Shown here: positions 44,327 through 52,020 of the stretch, piece by piece
How the letters are laid out: each line of letters starts with the position of its first letter
How positions within the stretch are numbered: the first letter of the stretch is position 1
From: Pararhodobacter aggregans
Lineage (GTDB): Bacteria; Pseudomonadota; Alphaproteobacteria; Rhodobacterales; Rhodobacteraceae
Reading direction: 5' to 3'
Length of the DNA: 64,000 nucleotides
NCBI RefSeq assembly: GCF_003075525.1
Contig: NZ_QDDR01000002.1
Span: 496,001 to 560,000, forward strand
Notes under the pieces: model-generated
What the model was told of the DNA's origin: nothing
The model's input: the letters and a program-made list of their open reading frames with translations, nothing else
Database searches by the model: none
Translations under genes and position numbers: made by a program

Positions 44327-45934
44327 TTAATCGGCGAGCGCCAGAAGCTGGCGGTTGCTGATCGTGCCTTCGGATGACACCAGCCCCGCCATGCGGCTGT
44401 CCGACAGCAGGTCGCGCAGATCCACCGCCCGCCCGTTGACATAGGCCCGGCGCGAGACCAGCCGGATGCCGTGGCTGTAATCGGCGTATTGCGCGCCGTG
44501 CACCGTGCTCAGCGGCTGGATGGCCCGCCCATTGCGCTGGTGCCAGCCATAGATCGCCACGCGCCCCGGATTGGCCTGCAGTCGGTTGGTCAGCACGAGG
44601 TCCTTCTTGTGCCCGGACACCAGCTGCCCCAGCCGGGCGCCCGACTGGCGCATCTGCCCCTGAACGGTCGCGTTGTGACGCAGGAAGTAATTGGTCGAGG
44701 ACATGGCCGAGGTCGGATCCATCGGCGCCGGGCTCAGATGGACATTGGCCTGCTGATAGATCGCGTCGACCATGCGGGTCGTGGGCAGCACCATGTCGAA
44801 GCGCTCGGCCACCTGCATGGCGGCGGGAAGGCCCAGCGGCACGCGGACGAAATCGCGGTCCGAGCCGACGGAAAGGTAATCGGGCGTCACGCAGATGGTG
44901 ATGGTCATGCCGTTGCCCGCGAAGGTCACCGGCACCAGATCGCGCAGGAAATCCGGGACGTTACCGGCCAGAACCTCGGAAATGATCGCGTTGTCACGCT
45001 CGCGGCCGCCGGCATTGCTCAACCGGCCGATCACGGCGCTGCCGTCGCCGGCGCCGCGGCTGCGGCGGGGGATGGCGCGGGTCAGGTCGGCGTCGCAGCT
45101 GGCGCTGCGGGCGCCCCGGGTCAGGGCCGGGATTTCCAGCACGGCGGGGGCGGCCCGCGGCGTATCGGTGGTGGTGCGGCCCAGATCGAGCGAGGCGAGG
45201 CGTGTGACCGTTTCCGGCCGGGGTTGCGGCGTGCGCGAGCGGATCAGGCCGGTTGCCTCGCCGATCGCGGCGAAGAGCGAGGGCGATTGCTCGGGCGCCG
45301 GTTCCTCGGCCGCCGGGGCGGCAAGTGCAGGGCGCGGGCGCGGCAGCAGCGAGCGGGTCGGCGCGTGCAGGGCGGCCAGGGCCTGCGGATCGGCGGGAGC
45401 CTCGGGCGTGGCGGCAGGAGCCTCGGGCGCCACTGCGGCGGTGGCAACCGGGGCAGGGCGCCGGGGCGGGCTCACCCGCGGCGGGCCTTCACGGGTGGCG
45501 ATCTGCGGCACCGGGTGGGGTTCGGCCCGGGGTCCAGGGGCCGTTGCCGCCTCGGCGGGCGCCGGAGTGGCCTCGACCGGGGCGCTGGCCACCGCCGCAT
45601 GCGGCCGGGAAGCGCCGGGCTGACGGCGCGGCAGCACCGGGTCCAGCGCGTAATCTGGCGCGGCAAAGGGGCTCTCGCCCGTGCTGGACAGCGAGGAGAG
45701 CCAGATGCGCGGCCCCTCACCCCCGGTGCCTTGCCGGTGGTCCAGACCCAGCGATGGCCCCAGCGAGGCCACTGCGACCGAACCCGGGCGGGCGGGTTCG
45801 GCATGCCACAACGCCTGAGCGCCGACCGCGATCAGCGCCAGAGCCCCCAGACCGGTGGCGGCAAGCGTGATCTGTCCCGCACTCGCGAAGAGGCGCGCCT
45901 TTGCGGCACGCGGTTCCATTCTGTCCCTCGTCAT
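44327..45934 (-). CDS. Exported or membrane-anchored protein with unknown C-terminal domain
   Basis: About 535 residues from ATG 45934 (a second ATG at 45919 is possible). A single hydrophobic helix near residues 19-40 follows a basic N-terminus, so the bulk is periplasmic. Then come about 200 residues of Pro/Ala-rich low-complexity linker and a folded C-terminal domain of about 230 residues with VTPDYLSVGSDRDFVRVPL, IYGWHQRNGRAIQPLS and VHGAQYADYSHGIRLV. The His, Asp and HG residues of the last two segments could form an active site. I do not recognise the family. It probably acts at the envelope or wall. Confidence 0.7.
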   Translation of the reverse strand: MTRDRMEPRAAKARLFASAGQITLAATGLGALALIAVGAQALWHAEPARPGSVAVASLGPSLGLDHRQGTGGEGPRIWLSSLSSTGESPFAAPDYALDPVLPRRQPGASRPHAAVASAPVEATPAPAEAATAPGPRAEPHPVPQIATREGPPRVSPPRRPAPVATAAVAPEAPAATPEAPADPQALAALHAPTRSLLPRPRPALAAPAAEEPAPEQSPSLFAAIGEATGLIRSRTPQPRPETVTRLASLDLGRTTTDTPRAAPAVLEIPALTRGARSASCDADLTRAIPRRSRGAGDGSAVIGRLSNAGGRERDNAIISEVLAGNVPDFLRDLVPVTFAGNGMTITICVTPDYLSVGSDRDFVRVPLGLPAAMQVAERFDMVLPTTRMVDAIYQQANVHLSPAPMDPTSAMSSTNYFLRHNATVQGQMRQSGARLGQLVSGHKKDLVLTNRLQANPGRVAIYGWHQRNGRAIQPLSTVHGAQYADYSHGIRLVSRRAYVNGRAVDLRDLLSDSRMAGLVSSEGTISNRQLLALAD

Positions 45935-46303: not shown

Positions 46304-47038
46304 CTAAAGCCGCGTGCGCTTGAACAGGATCTCGGGCAGGGCGGTGATGATCTGCATGACCAGCCGCCAGACGGGTTTCACATAGATCACGTCGCGGCGG
46401 TGTTTCTCGGCCTGCCAGATCGCCTCGGCCACCTGCTCGGGCAGGGCGGTGAGGCGCGGGTTGAGGTCCATGCCCTCGGTCATCCTTGTGGCGACGAAGC
46501 CCGGTTTCACGGTGATGACATGCAGGTCGGTGCCGTGGAAGCGGTTCCTGAGCCCGCTGAGGAAGGCCGTGAACCCCGCCTTGGCCGAGCCATAGACGTA
46601 GTTCGAGGCCCGGCCCCGGTCGCCCGCCACCGAGGAGATGCCGATCAGCACGCCATGCCCGCGCAGCGCCATCCGGTCGGCCAGCAGGCCGAGGATCAGC
46701 GCCGGCCCCTCGTAATTCGAGCGCATGACCAGGGCCGCGGCTTGCGGGTCCTTTTCGCTGGTGCCCTGGGTGCCCATGAAGCCCACGGCGCAGATCACCG
46801 TATCGGGCAGCGCGGGCAGGGCGTCGACGAAGGGCGCGAAGCCGGCCGTTTCCAGCACGTCGAAACGGTGGGTGCTGACCTTGACCCGGTGGCGCAGGCG
46901 CAGGTCCTGTGCGTCGGCCTCCAGCGCCTCGGGGTCGCGGCCGGCCAGTTGCAGCGTGTAGCCCTCGGCCCCGTAGCGATGGGCGCAGGCGCGGGCGATG
47001 TCCGACGTCGCGCCCAGGATCAGGGCTACGCCGCTCAC
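46304..47038 (-). CDS. dprE2: Decaprenylphosphoryl-2-keto-ribose reductase-like SDR (DprE2)
   Basis: A 244-residue short-chain dehydrogenase. NAD-binding LILGATSDIARA near residues 6-17, catalytic Ser near 135 and YxxxK as Tyr149-Lys153 are present. In mycobacteria DprE2 reduces the 2-keto intermediate made by DprE1 to give polyprenyl-phosphoryl-arabinose. The gene overlaps the DprE1-like gene by four bases, as the two enzymes work as a pair. The SDR family is broad, so the call depends on this context. Confidence 0.82.
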   Translation of the reverse strand: MSGVALILGATSDIARACAHRYGAEGYTLQLAGRDPEALEADAQDLRLRHRVKVSTHRFDVLETAGFAPFVDALPALPDTVICAVGFMGTQGTSEKDPQAAALVMRSNYEGPALILGLLADRMALRGHGVLIGISSVAGDRGRASNYVYGSAKAGFTAFLSGLRNRFHGTDLHVITVKPGFVATRMTEGMDLNPRLTALPEQVAEAIWQAEKHRRDVIYVKPVWRLVMQIITALPEILFKRTRL

Positions 47039-48354
47039 AGCCCCAACCTCGACGCCTGGGCCGAGGTGAAGGCCTGCGCGAGGCCCGTCTCACGGCGCAT
47101 TTCGACGAAGGCCTGCCAGCGGGGGTCCGTCCGGCGCAGCGTCTCGGCCGAGATCCGGCTGTCCTTGGCGAGGTAGAAGCGGCCGCCGAAATCGGCGGTG
47201 ATGCGGTCGAGGTCGGGCATCAGATCGAGGCTCCGGTGTGTGACGGGGAAATCGAGGGCCAGGGTATAGCCCTCCATCGGGAAGGAGAGGGCGCTCTCCT
47301 GCGGGCCGAAGCGTTTCAGCACCGCCAGGAACGAGCCCGCCCCGCTGCGGGTGATGGCGTCGAGGATGGCGCGCAGGCCCTCGGCCTTCGTCTCCAGCGG
47401 CACCACGCATTGGAATTGGATGAAGCCGCGGCGGCCATAGATCCGGTTCCAGTCGCGGATCGCGTCGAGCGGGTAGAAGAACGGCTCCCAGCCGGTGAGC
47501 GAGGGTCCGGCGCCGCGCTTGCCCATGAGGTAATAGAGCTCGTTGAAGGCGCGGATGGTCCAGGGGTTCAGCACGAAGCCCGGGAAATCGAAGGGCACCC
47601 GGGGGCTCAGATGCCCGCGCGCGGCAAAGGGTTGCGCGCGTTTGGCGGGCGGCAGGTCCGCAAGCCGGGCGTGTTCGCCGTTCATGACGATGGACCGGCC
47701 CATCCGCGCGCCAGTGGCCGCGCAGTCGATCCAGGCCATGGAATAGGTGGCGCTATAGGTGGCCTCGAACGCCTCCAGCGCCGCCTCCAGATGGGGCGCG
47801 GCCAGCGTCGTCTGGCGGATCCAGCCGCTTTCCACCCGCTTCAGCCGGATGGCGGCGCGCAGGATGAAGCCGCTGAGCCCCATGCCGCCCAGCGTCCAGT
47901 GGAAGAGGTCGGCATTCTCGGTCCGTGAGCAGCGGCTGACCTGGCCCTCCGGTCCCATCAAGTCGATCCAGTCGACGAAGGCGCCGAACGAGCCCTCGGC
48001 ATGGTGGTTCTTGCCATGGACATCAGCGGCGATGGCGCCGCCGAGCGAGACGAATTGCGTCCCGGGCGTGACCGAGGGGAACCAGCCCAGCGGCAGGAAG
48101 GCCTTGATGATCGCGCCCAGCGTCACGCCCGCTTCGGCCACCAGCTGACCGGTCGCGGCGTCAAAGGCCAGCATCCGGTCGAGGTGCCGGGTCGAGACCG
48201 CATGCGCGCCGATCGCCGGATCGCCATAGGCCCGGCCCATGCCGCGCGGCGTGATGGCGCCGCCGGTCAGCAGCGCCGCAAGCTCGACCTCGGTGCGGGG
48301 GGTGCTGAGCCTGCCCTCGGTGCGCGGATAACGGCCCCAGCCTGACAGCTGCAT
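47035..48354 (-). CDS. dprE1: Decaprenylphosphoryl-ribose 2-oxidase-like flavoenzyme (DprE1)
   Basis: A 439-residue FAD oxidase of the VAO/PCMH fold. The segments VTPGTQFVSLGGA and DVHGKNHH (His113) are very close to mycobacterial DprE1, as is AKDSR with Lys397, the equivalent of essential Lys418. The residue matching Cys387, the covalent target of benzothiazinones, is Ala366 (TLALDFP). It oxidises the 2-OH of polyprenyl-phosphoryl-ribose. ATG 48354 overlaps the gtrA stop by one base (a GTG one codon earlier is possible). The neighbours are gtrA upstream and dprE2 downstream. Confidence 0.87.
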   Translation of the reverse strand: MQLSGWGRYPRTEGRLSTPRTEVELAALLTGGAITPRGMGRAYGDPAIGAHAVSTRHLDRMLAFDAATGQLVAEAGVTLGAIIKAFLPLGWFPSVTPGTQFVSLGGAIAADVHGKNHHAEGSFGAFVDWIDLMGPEGQVSRCSRTENADLFHWTLGGMGLSGFILRAAIRLKRVESGWIRQTTLAAPHLEAALEAFEATYSATYSMAWIDCAATGARMGRSIVMNGEHARLADLPPAKRAQPFAARGHLSPRVPFDFPGFVLNPWTIRAFNELYYLMGKRGAGPSLTGWEPFFYPLDAIRDWNRIYGRRGFIQFQCVVPLETKAEGLRAILDAITRSGAGSFLAVLKRFGPQESALSFPMEGYTLALDFPVTHRSLDLMPDLDRITADFGGRFYLAKDSRISAETLRRTDPRWQAFVEMRRETGLAQAFTSAQASRLGL

Positions 48355-48773
48355 CACAGATCCCCCGCGCGGGGCGCGAAGGTGATGCGCCGGTCGAGTT
48401 GGTATTTCACCACATAGCCCACCATCAGCCCCAGAAGCGCGCCGATCTCGCGCGCCTCATGCGTGCCGAACCACAGCCAGAAGCCGGTCTCGGCGCCCCA
48501 GAACAGCGCCGTCGTGACGCCGCCCATGATCGTGTAGAGGGTGAACTTGCGGCCATGCGCCTTCAGCCCCGTCTCGTCGTCGCCGAAGATCCAGCGCTTG
48601 TCGAGGACATACTTGACCACCAGCCCCACCGCCGTGCCCGCCAGCACCGCGATCAGGTAGCGGCCCGGCCGGTCGCCGCCCGTCAGCACCAGCCGCTGCG
48701 CGCCCAGATTGGCCGCCGTCGCCAGCACGGCAAACAGGCTGTAGCGCCAGAGCAGGGTCCATCCGCTGACCAT
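48354..48773 (-). CDS. GtrA-family membrane protein
   Basis: A 139-residue protein with four hydrophobic spans (about 8-28, 38-56, 76-97 and 104-121), typical of GtrA proteins proposed to flip or guide polyprenyl-phosphate sugars. In mycobacteria a GtrA protein (Rv3789) lies directly before dprE1-dprE2, the same order as here. ATG at 48773 shares one base with the UbiA-gene stop. Confidence 0.88.
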   Translation of the reverse strand: MVSGWTLLWRYSLFAVLATAANLGAQRLVLTGGDRPGRYLIAVLAGTAVGLVVKYVLDKRWIFGDDETGLKAHGRKFTLYTIMGGVTTALFWGAETGFWLWFGTHEAREIGALLGLMVGYVVKYQLDRRITFAPRAGDL

Positions 48774-50209
48774 CAGAGAACCTTCGCGCCGATGAACAGC
48801 GCGCCGATGATCGCCACGCTGACCAGGCTCGCCGGGTCGCGGGCGGCAAAGACGGTGGGGTCGTCGTGCATCCGGCCGCGGCTCGCCACCAGCACCATGC
48901 GCGACACCCAGTAAAGCAGCACCAGGCACGCGGCCCAGAGCAGCAGCGGGTGGTGGTAAAGCATCAGCACCTCGGGCTCGTTGAGATAGAGCATCAGCAC
49001 CAGCACCGCGACGAAGCCCGAGGCGGTGGCCATCTGCGTCACCACCGCCAGATCGCTGACCCGGTAGCCGCGCCCGGCCGCCGCGGTCACGTTGCGCTGC
49101 GCCATATCCACGAGTTCGGCCTGCCGCTTGACCGCGGCCAGAGCGAAGAACAGGAACGCCGAGAAGGCCAGCAGCCAGACCGACAGGTCGATGCCCGAGG
49201 CCGCGCCCCCGGCGATGACCCGCATCGTATAGAGGCTGGCCAGGAGCGCGATGTCGATGATCGGCTGGCGCTTGAGCCAGAGCGAATAGGCGACGGTCAG
49301 GATGTAATATCCCCCCAGCACCAGCAGGAAGAGCGGCGGCAGGAAGATCGCCACGCCGATCCCGGCCAGCAGCAGCGCGGGCACCATCAGCATCCCGCTT
49401 CTGAGCGGCAGCGCGCCCGAGGCCAGCGGCCGCAGCCGTTTGCGCGGATGGGCCCGGTCCGAGGCGATGTCGAGCAGGTCGTTCAGCAGATAGACCGACG
49501 AGGCGACGAGGCTGAAGGCCACCACCGCCAGAAGGCTGGGCAGCAGCGCGTCCGCGTTGAAATCATGCGCGGCGATCATCGGAAAGAAGATCAGCGCGTT
49601 CTTGAACCATTGATGCGGCCGCATGGCCCTGAGCGCCGCCGGCAGCAGCGAGCGCGGCGGCGCGAGGTGGCGGGCCTCGCGGTGCAGGTCCTCGACCCGG
49701 GCGCGCAGCGCGGCGGGCACGCCCACGGTGACCGCCCCCGCCGCATCGCGCCAGACCGGCAGATCGGCGGTGCTGTCGCCAGCGTAGACATAGCCGCCCT
49801 TGCCATATTCGGCACGCAGCAGCGCCGCTTTCGCCTCGCCCTTGAGGTTGGTGGTGCCGTCCGAGCCATGCACCTCGTCGAAGACGCCCAGATGGCTGGC
49901 GATGGCATGGGCGATGGATTGGTCCGCCGCCGTCACCAGCGCCACCCGGCCGCCGTCAGCGCGCCAGCGGGCGATCTCGTCCAGGACCTCGGCCGAATAG
50001 GGCAGGGTGGCGGGATCGGGGGCGCCCAGCGTCGCCAGCCGCGCCTTCAACGCCGCCTTGCCCCGCGCCAAGGCCGCCAGCGCGGCCAGCGGCGTGCGCC
50101 AGTCGCGCGAAAAGGCGGACCAGAAACTCTCGTACAGCATGTCCGAGCGCACCAGCGTTCCGTCCAGATCCACGACCAGCAGCGGCCGGGTATCTTTCAT
50201 GTGATCCAT
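48773..50209 (-). CDS. HAD phosphatase-UbiA prenyltransferase fusion (phosphoribosyl-polyprenyl-phosphate synthase-like)
   Basis: A 478-residue two-domain protein. Residues 1-185 are a HAD phosphatase with VVDLDGTLVRSD (Asp14, Asp16) and a late GDSTADLP motif. From about 190 it is a UbiA-family membrane enzyme with the aspartate motif NDLLDIASDRAHPRKR, which matches the mycobacterial phosphoribosyltransferase Rv3806c. It should transfer phosphoribose from PRPP to a polyprenyl phosphate and remove the 5-phosphate, feeding DprE1. The start is uncertain: ATG 50209 has AGGA upstream, ATG 50254 and ATG 50260 give longer N-termini. It is the first gene of the operon; NoeC/NoeH of Azorhizobium appear to be the separate equivalents. 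Confidence 0.83.
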   Translation of the reverse strand: MDHMKDTRPLLVVDLDGTLVRSDMLYESFWSAFSRDWRTPLAALAALARGKAALKARLATLGAPDPATLPYSAEVLDEIARWRADGGRVALVTAADQSIAHAIASHLGVFDEVHGSDGTTNLKGEAKAALLRAEYGKGGYVYAGDSTADLPVWRDAAGAVTVGVPAALRARVEDLHREARHLAPPRSLLPAALRAMRPHQWFKNALIFFPMIAAHDFNADALLPSLLAVVAFSLVASSVYLLNDLLDIASDRAHPRKRLRPLASGALPLRSGMLMVPALLLAGIGVAIFLPPLFLLVLGGYYILTVAYSLWLKRQPIIDIALLASLYTMRVIAGGAASGIDLSVWLLAFSAFLFFALAAVKRQAELVDMAQRNVTAAAGRGYRVSDLAVVTQMATASGFVAVLVLMLYLNEPEVLMLYHHPLLLWAACLVLLYWVSRMVLVASRGRMHDDPTVFAARDPASLVSVAIIGALFIGAKVL

Positions 50210-50376
50210 CAAGGGCGTTCCTGTGCGCAAGCCAGCCTGCGGGTGGTCCGACATTCGCATGCCCCGGGAAGGCGGCGCAAGGGGGGCGGGATGCGGTCAA
50301 TTGCGCGGCAAAAGGGGCGGGAGATGCGGCTATCGGCGCCGGTGCAGGGCGGGTGGCGTGCCGGGGGCCGCCGGGG

Positions 50377-50778
50377 TCAGTTGATGATATCGCCGGTGAT
50401 CGCGGCGATCCGGGCGCGCCAGGCGGCGCGTTCCTCCGGGGTGAGCCGGGTCCAGCCCTCCAGCTCGCCGACGATTCTGAGCGGGGCGGCGCTGCGGTAG
50501 GAGCGCGTCGGATTGCCGGGGAATTTCTGGTCGGTGACGTTCGGGTCGTCCTCGAACGGGCCGGTCGGGGTGACGATATAGACCCGCTCGCGCGCCTCTC
50601 CCGGGGCGAGCGCCGCGGCCAGCGCCGCCGGGGCGGGCAGGGCGGTGAAATAGACATGGTTCATGCGGATCGAGGGGCGGTAATTCGACGGGTTCCCCGC
50701 GACCAGCAGATCGCCGATCCGCAGATCGGCGCGGGTGCCGTGATAGAAGGGGCCGTTATCGGCGGGGACTGGGGGCAT
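50377..50778 (-). CDS. arr: Rifampin ADP-ribosyltransferase (Arr)
   Basis: A 133-residue protein strongly resembling Arr enzymes, which ADP-ribosylate the C23 hydroxyl of rifamycins using NAD. The segments GPFYHGTRADLRIGDLL (His13), VYFTAL (Tyr43) and PTGPFEDDPN (Asp77/78), and FPGNPT with LRIVGELE, follow Arr-2 and Arr-ms almost throughout. Length is the family norm. ATG 50778 has GGGAGAGG upstream. It is not in an integron or near a transposase, so it looks like a chromosomal copy. Activity on rifampin is inference from family membership. Confidence 0.88.
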   Translation of the reverse strand: MPPVPADNGPFYHGTRADLRIGDLLVAGNPSNYRPSIRMNHVYFTALPAPAALAAALAPGEARERVYIVTPTGPFEDDPNVTDQKFPGNPTRSYRSAAPLRIVGELEGWTRLTPEERAAWRARIAAITGDIIN

Positions 50779-51144: not shown

Positions 51145-52020
51145 ATGGAAATCGCCCTTCACCTCGGCGCGCATCTGACCGACCAGGACCATCTGGTGCG
51201 CTGCCTGATGCGCAACCGCGGGCCGCTGCTGGCCCAGGGGATCGCCGTCCCCGGACCCGGCCGCTATCGCCAGCAGCTGCGGCAGCTGGCCTTCGACATG
51301 CGCGGGCACGAGACCAATGCCCAGACCCAGGAAGCGCTGCTCGACGGGATCCTCGATGAGGACAATGTCCGCCGGGTGGTGTTCTCGTCCGACAATTTCC
51401 TGGCGATCTCGAAATGGGCGCTGAACGCCGGGCAGCTTTACCACGCGGCGGGGGAGCGGGTGCAGATGCTGCGCCACCTTTTCCCCGAAGCGCGGCTGGA
51501 GCTGTTCCTGTGCCTGCGCAACCCCGCGACCTTCCTGCCGGCGCTGCTGGCCGCGGACGAGACGGGCGCGGTGCAGAAACAGATCGAGGACGCGGCGCTG
51601 GCGAGCATCCGCTGGTCGGCCACGGTGGCGCAGATCCTGGAGGCCGCGCCGGGCGTCAGCCTGACGGTCTGGGCCGACGAGGATACGCCGCTTCTGTGGC
51701 CCGAGGTGCTGCGCGCGGTCTCGGGCCATGCGCCGGGGATGGATCTGGCGGGCTGGCTGGCCTGGTATCACCGGCTGGTGACGCCCGCCGGCCACGCCGC
51801 CATGCGCCGCTGGTTCGAACAGAACCCGCCGGTGGACGATGCGGCGCGGCGGCGGATGCTGGCGGCGCTGCTGGCGCGCTTCGTCAAGCCCGAGGCGCTG
51901 GAGGGCGACCCGCTGCCGCCCGGCTGGACCGAAGAGACGGTCGATGCGCTCACCGATCTCTACGACGAAGATCTGGATCTGATCGCCGCCCTGCCGGGGG
52001 TCACGCTGCTGGAGCCGTGA
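51145..52020 (+). CDS. Uncharacterised protein, sulfotransferase-like
   Basis: A 291-residue soluble protein. It opens with MEIALHLGAHLTDQD, reminiscent of the HxGxxKTGTT phosphate loop of sulfotransferase-like proteins but without a Lys, so a P-loop function is doubtful. The pattern RLELFLCLRNPATFLPALL near residue 117 also resembles that family's 3'-phosphate site (R-N-P). No transmembrane segment or signal peptide is seen. It is convergent with gapR and separated from it by a perfect hairpin. Function unknown. Confidence 0.65.
   Translation: MEIALHLGAHLTDQDHLVRCLMRNRGPLLAQGIAVPGPGRYRQQLRQLAFDMRGHETNAQTQEALLDGILDEDNVRRVVFSSDNFLAISKWALNAGQLYHAAGERVQMLRHLFPEARLELFLCLRNPATFLPALLAADETGAVQKQIEDAALASIRWSATVAQILEAAPGVSLTVWADEDTPLLWPEVLRAVSGHAPGMDLAGWLAWYHRLVTPAGHAAMRRWFEQNPPVDDAARRRMLAALLARFVKPEALEGDPLPPGWTEETVDALTDLYDEDLDLIAALPGVTLLEP

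What the first reader, a model, noticed from the sequence alone, without database searches (positions are those of the whole stretch)
46304..50209. Four-gene operon matching the mycobacterial polyprenyl-phosphoryl-arabinose pathway
The sequence shows, in one overlapping operon, a UbiA enzyme with the Rv3806c-type NDxxDxxxDRxHPxKR motif fused to a HAD phosphatase, a GtrA protein, a DprE1-like FAD oxidase and a DprE2-like SDR. This is the full route from PRPP and polyprenyl phosphate to polyprenyl-phosphoryl-D-arabinose. In mycobacteria the GtrA-DprE1-DprE2 order is the same. The HAD fusion would supply the 5-phosphatase step. What an alphaproteobacterium decorates with D-arabinose (LPS, capsule, glycolipid) is open; no arabinosyltransferase is in the window.
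Basis: partly seen in the sequence, partly recalled or inferred. Interest (0 to 1): 0.75.

Follow-up and report, generated by a model that had tools for sequence, protein, structure and literature searches.

The report
Arabinose-lipid donor operon with new partners
A bacterium that looks like a relative of Rhodobacter carries the genes to make a lipid-linked arabinose building block, as tuberculosis bacteria do, and in the related genomes examined two poorly understood envelope proteins occurred only where the first enzyme of that route was present, a hint at how the sugar is used.

Summary
A minus-strand operon encodes a HAD phosphatase-UbiA fusion (48773-50260), GtrA (48354-48773), a DprE1-like oxidase (47035-48357) and a DprE2-like SDR (46304-47038). 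Profiles, solved-structure matches and catalytic motifs support a polyprenyl-phosphoryl-pentofuranose donor pathway, most likely D-arabinofuranose. The kind is known: the HAD-UbiA fusion was proven biochemically in Citrobacter (PMC11127046), and D-arabinosylation genes are described in rhizobia (PMC5080398). New here: (1) Four GT-C profiles found no partner in this genome; other GT-C families were not searched. (2) The next gene (X, 44327-45934; no Pfam or NCBIfam family) and another protein, c1 (faintly phosphodiester-glycosidase-like), occur in the same 23 of 198 family genomes, all 23 with HAD-UbiA (83 of 198; hypergeometric 3e-10, not phylogeny-corrected). In 5 of the 23 X is clearly unlinked to HAD-UbiA (chance 0.006). 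(3) X goes with several HAD-UbiA clades, with or without DprE1/DprE2 nearby. The donor probably feeds this envelope module. What X and c1 do is unknown; the boldest reading, a non-GT-C pentofuranosyltransferase, is speculative.

The parts
48773..50260 (-). HAD phosphatase-UbiA fusion, polyprenyl-phosphate phosphoribosyltransferase (PPPRS) type; HAD about 49754-50176, UbiA about 48863-49573
   Evidence: NF006088 616.8 bits over cut-off 351; Pfam HAD and UbiA; 8j8j E 3.4e-32
48354..48773 (-). GtrA-family small membrane protein, candidate flippase
   Evidence: PF04138 45 bits, NF037976 164 bits, both over cut-offs; start codon
47035..48357 (-). DprE1-like FAD oxidase; Mtb Lys418 kept, Mtb Cys387 replaced by Ala
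   Evidence: DprE1 structures E 4e-80 over residues 3-439; residue numbers counted; NF053785 397 bits, below its cut-off of 500
46304..47038 (-). DprE2-like short-chain dehydrogenase/reductase with YxxxK motif (YVYGSAK)
   Evidence: NF005489 341 bits over cut-off; NF053786 DprE2 184 bits under cut-off 250
44327..45934 (-). gene X: one hydrophobic segment (hydropathy only), variable linker, conserved C-terminal domain (44330-45118); no Pfam or NCBIfam family; fold perhaps C-type-lectin/FGE-like (weak)
   Evidence: next to the operon in 4 of 5 X-bearing genomes of the phylum sample; 33 of 80 X loci hold all four operon genes; model pLDDT 91, fold comparison

Best explanation
The operon makes polyprenyl-phosphoryl-D-arabinofuranose. 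[quoted passage not shown] All steps are inferred from homology; the PPPRS and HAD steps are proven only in a relative. In this lineage the donor is consumed by, or for, an envelope module: X (beside the operon), c1 (faintly phosphodiester-glycosidase/NAGPA-like) and c2 (FGE-sulfatase domain). In the genomes sampled here X and c1 occur only with a HAD-UbiA synthase. Some X loci have an extended-SDR epimerase in place of DprE1/DprE2, or no epimerase nearby, so the module seems to need a polyprenyl-phospho-pentofuranose of some kind. Which component transfers the sugar, and to what, is not known.
For: Donor genes. Precedent for HAD-UbiA: PMC11127046. X and c1 in the same 23 of 198 family genomes, each a different genus code; all 23 carry HAD-UbiA over its cut-off, against 83 of 198 with any hit; hypergeometric 2.7e-10. 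In 9 of the 23 neither X nor c1 was within 15 kb of HAD-UbiA on one contig (1e-4), but in 4 of these X lies within 7 kb of a contig end; the 5 clear cases give 0.006. On a quick HAD-UbiA tree of 63 rows the X label needs 9 changes, at least 5 forced by starred branches. Arrangements: 80 X loci. Own c2-c1 lie at C2:587778-590539, about 28 kb beyond the window. No minus-strand terminator-like site between SDR and X.
Against: Nothing here measures chemistry. The DprE1 and DprE2 equivalog cut-offs are not met. In the window genome c1/c2 are not near the operon, and X begins 369 bases after the SDR. 60 of 83 HAD-UbiA genomes lack X/c1, so the donor has other uses. The co-occurrence test is not phylogeny-corrected, its strength rests mostly on genomes where the genes are linked or linkage is undecided, and the c1 profile was built from loci beside X. 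NAGPA similarity of c1 is weak, its model is poor (pLDDT 52), and X's fold matches are weak.
Confidence: 0.6

Rival explanations
1. An ordinary three-component system: the operon supplies polyprenyl-P-arabinose to a GT-C transferase encoded elsewhere in the genome, of a type not tested here. X/c1/c2 act downstream on the finished glycan or bind it.
For: GT-C transferases are the known users (PMC11127046). An AftB-like GT-C family (A7) lies in the HAD-UbiA stretches of some relatives and occurs in 9 of 198 family genomes, all 9 with HAD-UbiA; 3 of the 9 are where the profile came from, and the other 6 give 0.004. 8 of the 9 lack X. GT-C families are diverse: 9 of 10 candidates scanned reached no Pfam cut-off. 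Among 20 X+ HAD-UbiA stretches, 4 (L165, L177, L179, L181) hold large multi-TM proteins that I did not class.
Against: PF13231 and three GT-C profiles found nothing in this genome; of these only PF13231 and A7 had genomes where they rang.
Confidence: 0.35
2. The product is not D-arabinofuranose but another pentofuranose, such as ribofuranose or a different epimer.
For: DprE1/DprE2 cut-offs not met. In 47 of 80 X loci no DprE1 lies in the fetched stretch (many are cut by contig ends), and an extended-SDR epimerase is present in 17 of 80.
Against: Full-length DprE1 similarity with the Lys418 equivalent kept; DprE2 is the second-best NCBIfam model; same gene order as in mycobacteria (recalled).
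Confidence: 0.12
3. X/c1/c2 and HAD-UbiA are merely co-inherited neighbours in one lineage without a shared function.
For: X loci found are nearly all from Rhodobacterales-type records. The tests are not phylogeny-corrected, and only 5 of 23 genomes are clearly unlinked.
Against: X+ genomes fall in several HAD-UbiA clades, and the 5 clearly unlinked ones still carry HAD-UbiA (chance 0.006).
Confidence: 0.25
4. The UbiA protein is a quinone-type prenyltransferase and the oxidase/SDR pair serves other metabolism.
For: UbiA is a broad family.
Against: Best curated models are PRK08238 and decaprenyl-phosphate phosphoribosyltransferase, not quinone enzymes; the DPPRS motifs are present; DprE1 co-occurs in 32 of 40 loci.
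Confidence: 0.03

Closest known systems
Citrobacter youngae O1/O2 three-component pentofuranose system (ORF15/ORF14/ORF12; PMC11127046, sections 7, 9, 12 read)
   Same: HAD(PRP)-UbiA(PPPRS) fusion with the same catalytic motifs; extracytoplasmic donor logic; an epimerase diversifies the sugar (ORF13 in O2)
   Different: MATE flippase and a GT136 GT-C; the O2 epimerase is an SDR, not DprE1/DprE2; here GtrA, DprE1/DprE2-like enzymes and no GT-C found
Mycobacterial decaprenylphosphoryl-arabinose pathway (Rv3806c, Rv3807c, DprE1, DprE2, Rv3789; as described in PMC11127046)
   Same: UbiA synthase, oxidase/reductase epimerisation, small SMR-type transporter
   Different: 5-phosphatase is a separate unrelated protein; dedicated arabinosyltransferases; decaprenyl carrier
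Rhizobial Nod-factor D-arabinosylation, noeC(N)HOP (passages of PMC5080398 and PMC2443382)
   Same: Alphaproteobacterial lipid-linked D-arabinose route
   Different: NoeP as likely transferase, Nod-factor acceptor
Pseudomonas aeruginosa pilin D-arabinofuranose pathway (known here only through PMC11127046; Harvey 2011 not held)
   Same: PPPRS-based donor in a gram-negative
   Different: No HAD fusion; TfpW transferase (name recalled)

Membership tests
HAD-UbiA fusion PPPRS (PRK08238 / ORF15 type) | Over the curated cut-off of NF006088 along both domains | tested here: met
   616.8 bits, cut-off 351, residues 22-493
HAD-UbiA fusion PPPRS (PRK08238 / ORF15 type) | NDxxDxxxD motif and the loop IV Arg/Glu pair (residues named in PMC11127046) | tested here: met
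   NDLLDIASD and KRQAE in the alignment to 8j8j
HAD-UbiA fusion PPPRS (PRK08238 / ORF15 type) | HAD nucleophile Asp | tested here: met
   VVDLDGT in the translation; Pfam HAD E 1.2e-11
HAD-UbiA fusion PPPRS (PRK08238 / ORF15 type) | Makes polyprenyl-P-ribose from PRPP | not testable with these tools
   needs an enzyme assay
DprE1 equivalog (NF053785) | Score over 500 bits | tested here: not met
   397.1 bits; so DprE1-like, not filed as DprE1
DprE1 equivalog (NF053785) | Full-length relation and catalytic Lys418 (role recalled) | tested here: met
DprE2 equivalog (NF053786) | Score over 250 bits | tested here: not met
   183.8 bits; so DprE2-like
GtrA family | Over NF037976 and PF04138 cut-offs | tested here: met
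Three-component pentofuranose system | Dedicated GT-C transferase | tested here: inconclusive
   PF13231 and profiles A2, A3, A7 found none in the genome; other GT-C families not searched
Phosphodiester glycosidase (NAGPA/DUF2233), for c1 | Sequence profile or fold match | tested here: inconclusive
C-type-lectin/FGE fold, for X | Fold match | tested here: inconclusive

The most novel reading that the evidence does not exclude
c1, with X and c2, is a new non-GT-C way to use polyprenyl-phospho-pentofuranose: an exported phosphodiester-glycosidase-fold enzyme takes the sugar from the lipid phosphodiester and passes it to an acceptor held by two lectin/FGE-fold partners, with a swappable donor (arabinose, another epimer or ribose).
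Probability: 0.12. Interest if true: 0.85.

Novelty: new variant of a known kind. Interest (0 to 1): 0.5.

Why it matters
The donor operon itself extends a known kind of pathway. The observed dependence of X/c1 on a lipid-pentofuranose synthase gives a defined, testable set of proteins for the open question of what these bacteria decorate. If c1 really works on the lipid phosphodiester, it would be a glycosyl-transfer route outside the GT-C fold.

Tried and rejected
Quinone-type UbiA reading: rejected on profiles. Extensin-like reading of X (my first guess by eye): no Pfam or NCBIfam support. L,D-transpeptidase-like reading of X's SHGIRL motif (by eye): no such match among the rows shown, not pursued. 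Homology between X and c2: hhalign probability 0.7%. NAGPA against X: hhalign probability 0.2%. Controls for the c1-NAGPA comparison gave E 0.026, 0.3 and 0.68, so E 0.003 is only somewhat better. X on plasmids: no match. PDB by sequence for X and c1: none up to E 10. Arr as part of the system: not found at any of 80 X loci. Viral structure library for X: best E 0.027, nothing convincing. GT-C tests cover four profiles; EmbABC, AftA, AftD, GT87 and GT136 families were not searched. Empty answers had no positive control; PF13231 rang in 10 of 14 control genomes and A7 in relatives. In one search, L064 showed no HAD-UbiA with my ORF picker; tblastn found it. My ORF picker misses or merges some genes, and cluster 4 mixes two kinds of protein, so counts quoted are tblastn or the genome search counts where possible. 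Co-occurrence of c2 was not tested genome-wide. My first count of 9 unlinked X+ genomes was too generous: 4 of them (G321, G365, G474, G232) have X within 7 kb of a contig end. Literature searches; listings only, except the papers named.
Full report
What is there. On the minus strand of the window, four genes overlap by one to four bases: HAD-UbiA 48773-50260, GtrA 48354-48773, a DprE1-like oxidase 47035-48357 and a DprE2-like SDR 46304-47038. HAD-UbiA scores 616.8 bits against NF006088 (cut-off 351), and its UbiA part matches the solved M. tuberculosis phosphoribosyltransferase 8j8j at E 3.4e-32. The motif NDLLDIASDRAHPRKR and the KRQAE stretch carry the residues named for ORF15 in PMC11127046. 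The oxidase matches DprE1 structures at about E 4e-80 over its full length. The Lys418 equivalent is kept, and Mtb Cys387 is Ala here. The curated DprE1 and DprE2 equivalog cut-offs are not met (397 of 500 and 184 of 250 bits), so I call them DprE1-like and DprE2-like.

What is known. Kelly et al. 2024 (PMC11127046; outline, passages and sections 7, 9 and 12 read) showed that a Citrobacter HAD-UbiA fusion makes farnesyl-P-ribose from PRPP. Mutating its HAD Asp led to the 5-phosphate product, with some activity left. They describe such systems as widespread, with DprE1/E2 homologues in arabinofuranose systems. Rhizobial noeCHOP genes arabinosylate Nod factors (passages of PMC5080398 and PMC2443382). 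So the operon is a further example of a known donor pathway. At E 1e-20, NF006088 finds relatives in 46 of 299 Pseudomonadota genomes, 37 over the cut-off; some weaker hits cover the UbiA part only. Of 40 loci fetched from these 46 (own counted apart, 5 weak hits not fetched), 32 have DprE1 within at most 20 kb and 12 have all four genes.

Looking for the transferase. PF13231, an AftB-like profile (A2), a rhizobial GT-C profile (A3) and a profile made mostly from GT-C proteins in HAD-UbiA stretches of relatives (A7) found nothing in this genome. A7 rang in 9 of 198 family genomes, all 9 with HAD-UbiA; 3 of the 9 supplied the profile, and the other 6 give a chance of 0.004. 8 of the 9 lack X. 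Other GT-C families were not searched, and 4 of 20 HAD-UbiA stretches from X+ genomes hold large multi-TM proteins that I did not class, so a hidden GT-C is not excluded.

Gene X. The gene after the SDR (44327-45934, first ATG) has one hydrophobic segment and a conserved C-terminal domain without a Pfam or NCBIfam family. It starts 369 bases after the SDR, with no minus-strand terminator-like site between. In the phylum sample X occurs in 5 of 299 genomes, all with HAD-UbiA, and beside the operon in 4 of 5. A scan of genome contigs gave 124 relatives, of which the best 80 were kept; their titles name Rhodobacteraceae or Rhodobacterales, or genera I recall as such, apart from a few broader titles, one Phyllobacteriaceae and one Maritalea. 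In these 80 loci, many cut by contig ends, tblastn finds HAD-UbiA in 53, GtrA in 45, DprE1 in 33, all four in 33, c1 in 66, c2 in 66 and an extended-SDR epimerase (c9) in 17. Four arrangements recur: operon-X facing c2-c1; X facing c2-c1-c9 with HAD-UbiA and GtrA; HAD-UbiA-X facing c2-c1 without DprE1; and X facing c2-c1 alone. In the window's own close relatives (L077-L081) c1 and c2 are not in the flanks.

Co-occurrence. In 198 genomes of the family, each a different genus code, X is in 23 and c1 is in the same 23. HAD-UbiA is in 83, including all 23, all 23 over the cut-off. The hypergeometric chance is 2.7e-10. Cautions: phylogeny is ignored; linkage explains part of it. Neither X nor c1 was within 15 kb of HAD-UbiA in 9 genomes (1e-4), but in 4 of these X lies within 7 kb of a contig end; the 5 clear cases give 0.006. 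The c1 profile was built from loci beside X, so divergent c1 copies without X could be missed. On a quick tree of 63 HAD-UbiA proteins (23 X+, 40 of the 60 X-; 27 of 60 inner branches drawn open) the X label needs 9 changes, at least 5 forced by starred branches, so X/c1 goes with several kinds of HAD-UbiA. In the window's genome c2-c1 lie at C2:587778-590539, about 28 kb past the window.

Mechanism. Most likely the operon makes polyprenyl-P-D-arabinofuranose and flips it outward, and an envelope module containing X, c1 and c2 depends on it. Whether c1 or X uses the lipid-sugar directly, or a GT-C does so and X/c1/c2 act on the glycan, cannot be decided here. NAGPA enzymes cleave sugar phosphodiesters (recalled), and polyprenyl-P-sugars are sugar phosphodiesters, so a direct role of c1 is chemically sensible but untested.

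A related lead. A second clade of HAD-UbiA in the family lies beside Flp/Tad pilus genes: 25 of its 30 rows (the 5 c9-type rows set apart) have at least two of CpaE, CpaF, RcpA, RcpC and TadB in the fetched stretch, against 1 of 27 own-like loci, 0 of 5 c9-type loci and none in the window. This suggests pilus arabinosylation in those genera; the listings of the literature searches I ran did not show it described.

Verdict. Observation confirmed, donor interpretation supported, kind already known. The new part is the association of X/c1/c2 with the donor synthase.

Noticed in passing
30 loci of the second HAD-UbiA clade (listed; for example L199, L209, L183): Flp/Tad pilus genes (at least two of five) in 25 of 30 stretches, an SLT transglycosylase in 29 and an LPG_synthase_TM protein in 27, beside HAD-UbiA: possible D-arabinosylation of the Flp pilus.
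   Followed up: partly
window 50377-50778 (-): Gene resembling rifampin ADP-ribosyltransferase Arr (NF033144 143 bits, cut-off 130), 116 bases upstream of HAD-UbiA on the same strand; not found at the 80 X loci.
   Followed up: partly
L126, L114, L153 and others: Extended-SDR epimerase c9 next to HAD-UbiA without DprE1 (c9 in 17 of 80 X loci): perhaps another pentofuranose, as ORF13 of Citrobacter O2 is linked to xylofuranose.
   Followed up: no
L083, L085, L096, L118, L122 and others: An exported-looking protein upstream of the operon or X in several X loci, with Sel1 repeats and a weak peptidoglycan-binding match in the one member scanned.
   Followed up: no
window 47035-48357: The residue matching Mtb DprE1 Cys387, the covalent target of benzothiazinones (recalled), is Ala here.
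   Followed up: no
window 51145-52020 (+): Protein of 291 aa without a Pfam or NCBIfam family; by eye like cluster 34 (three X loci, representative L081).
   Followed up: no
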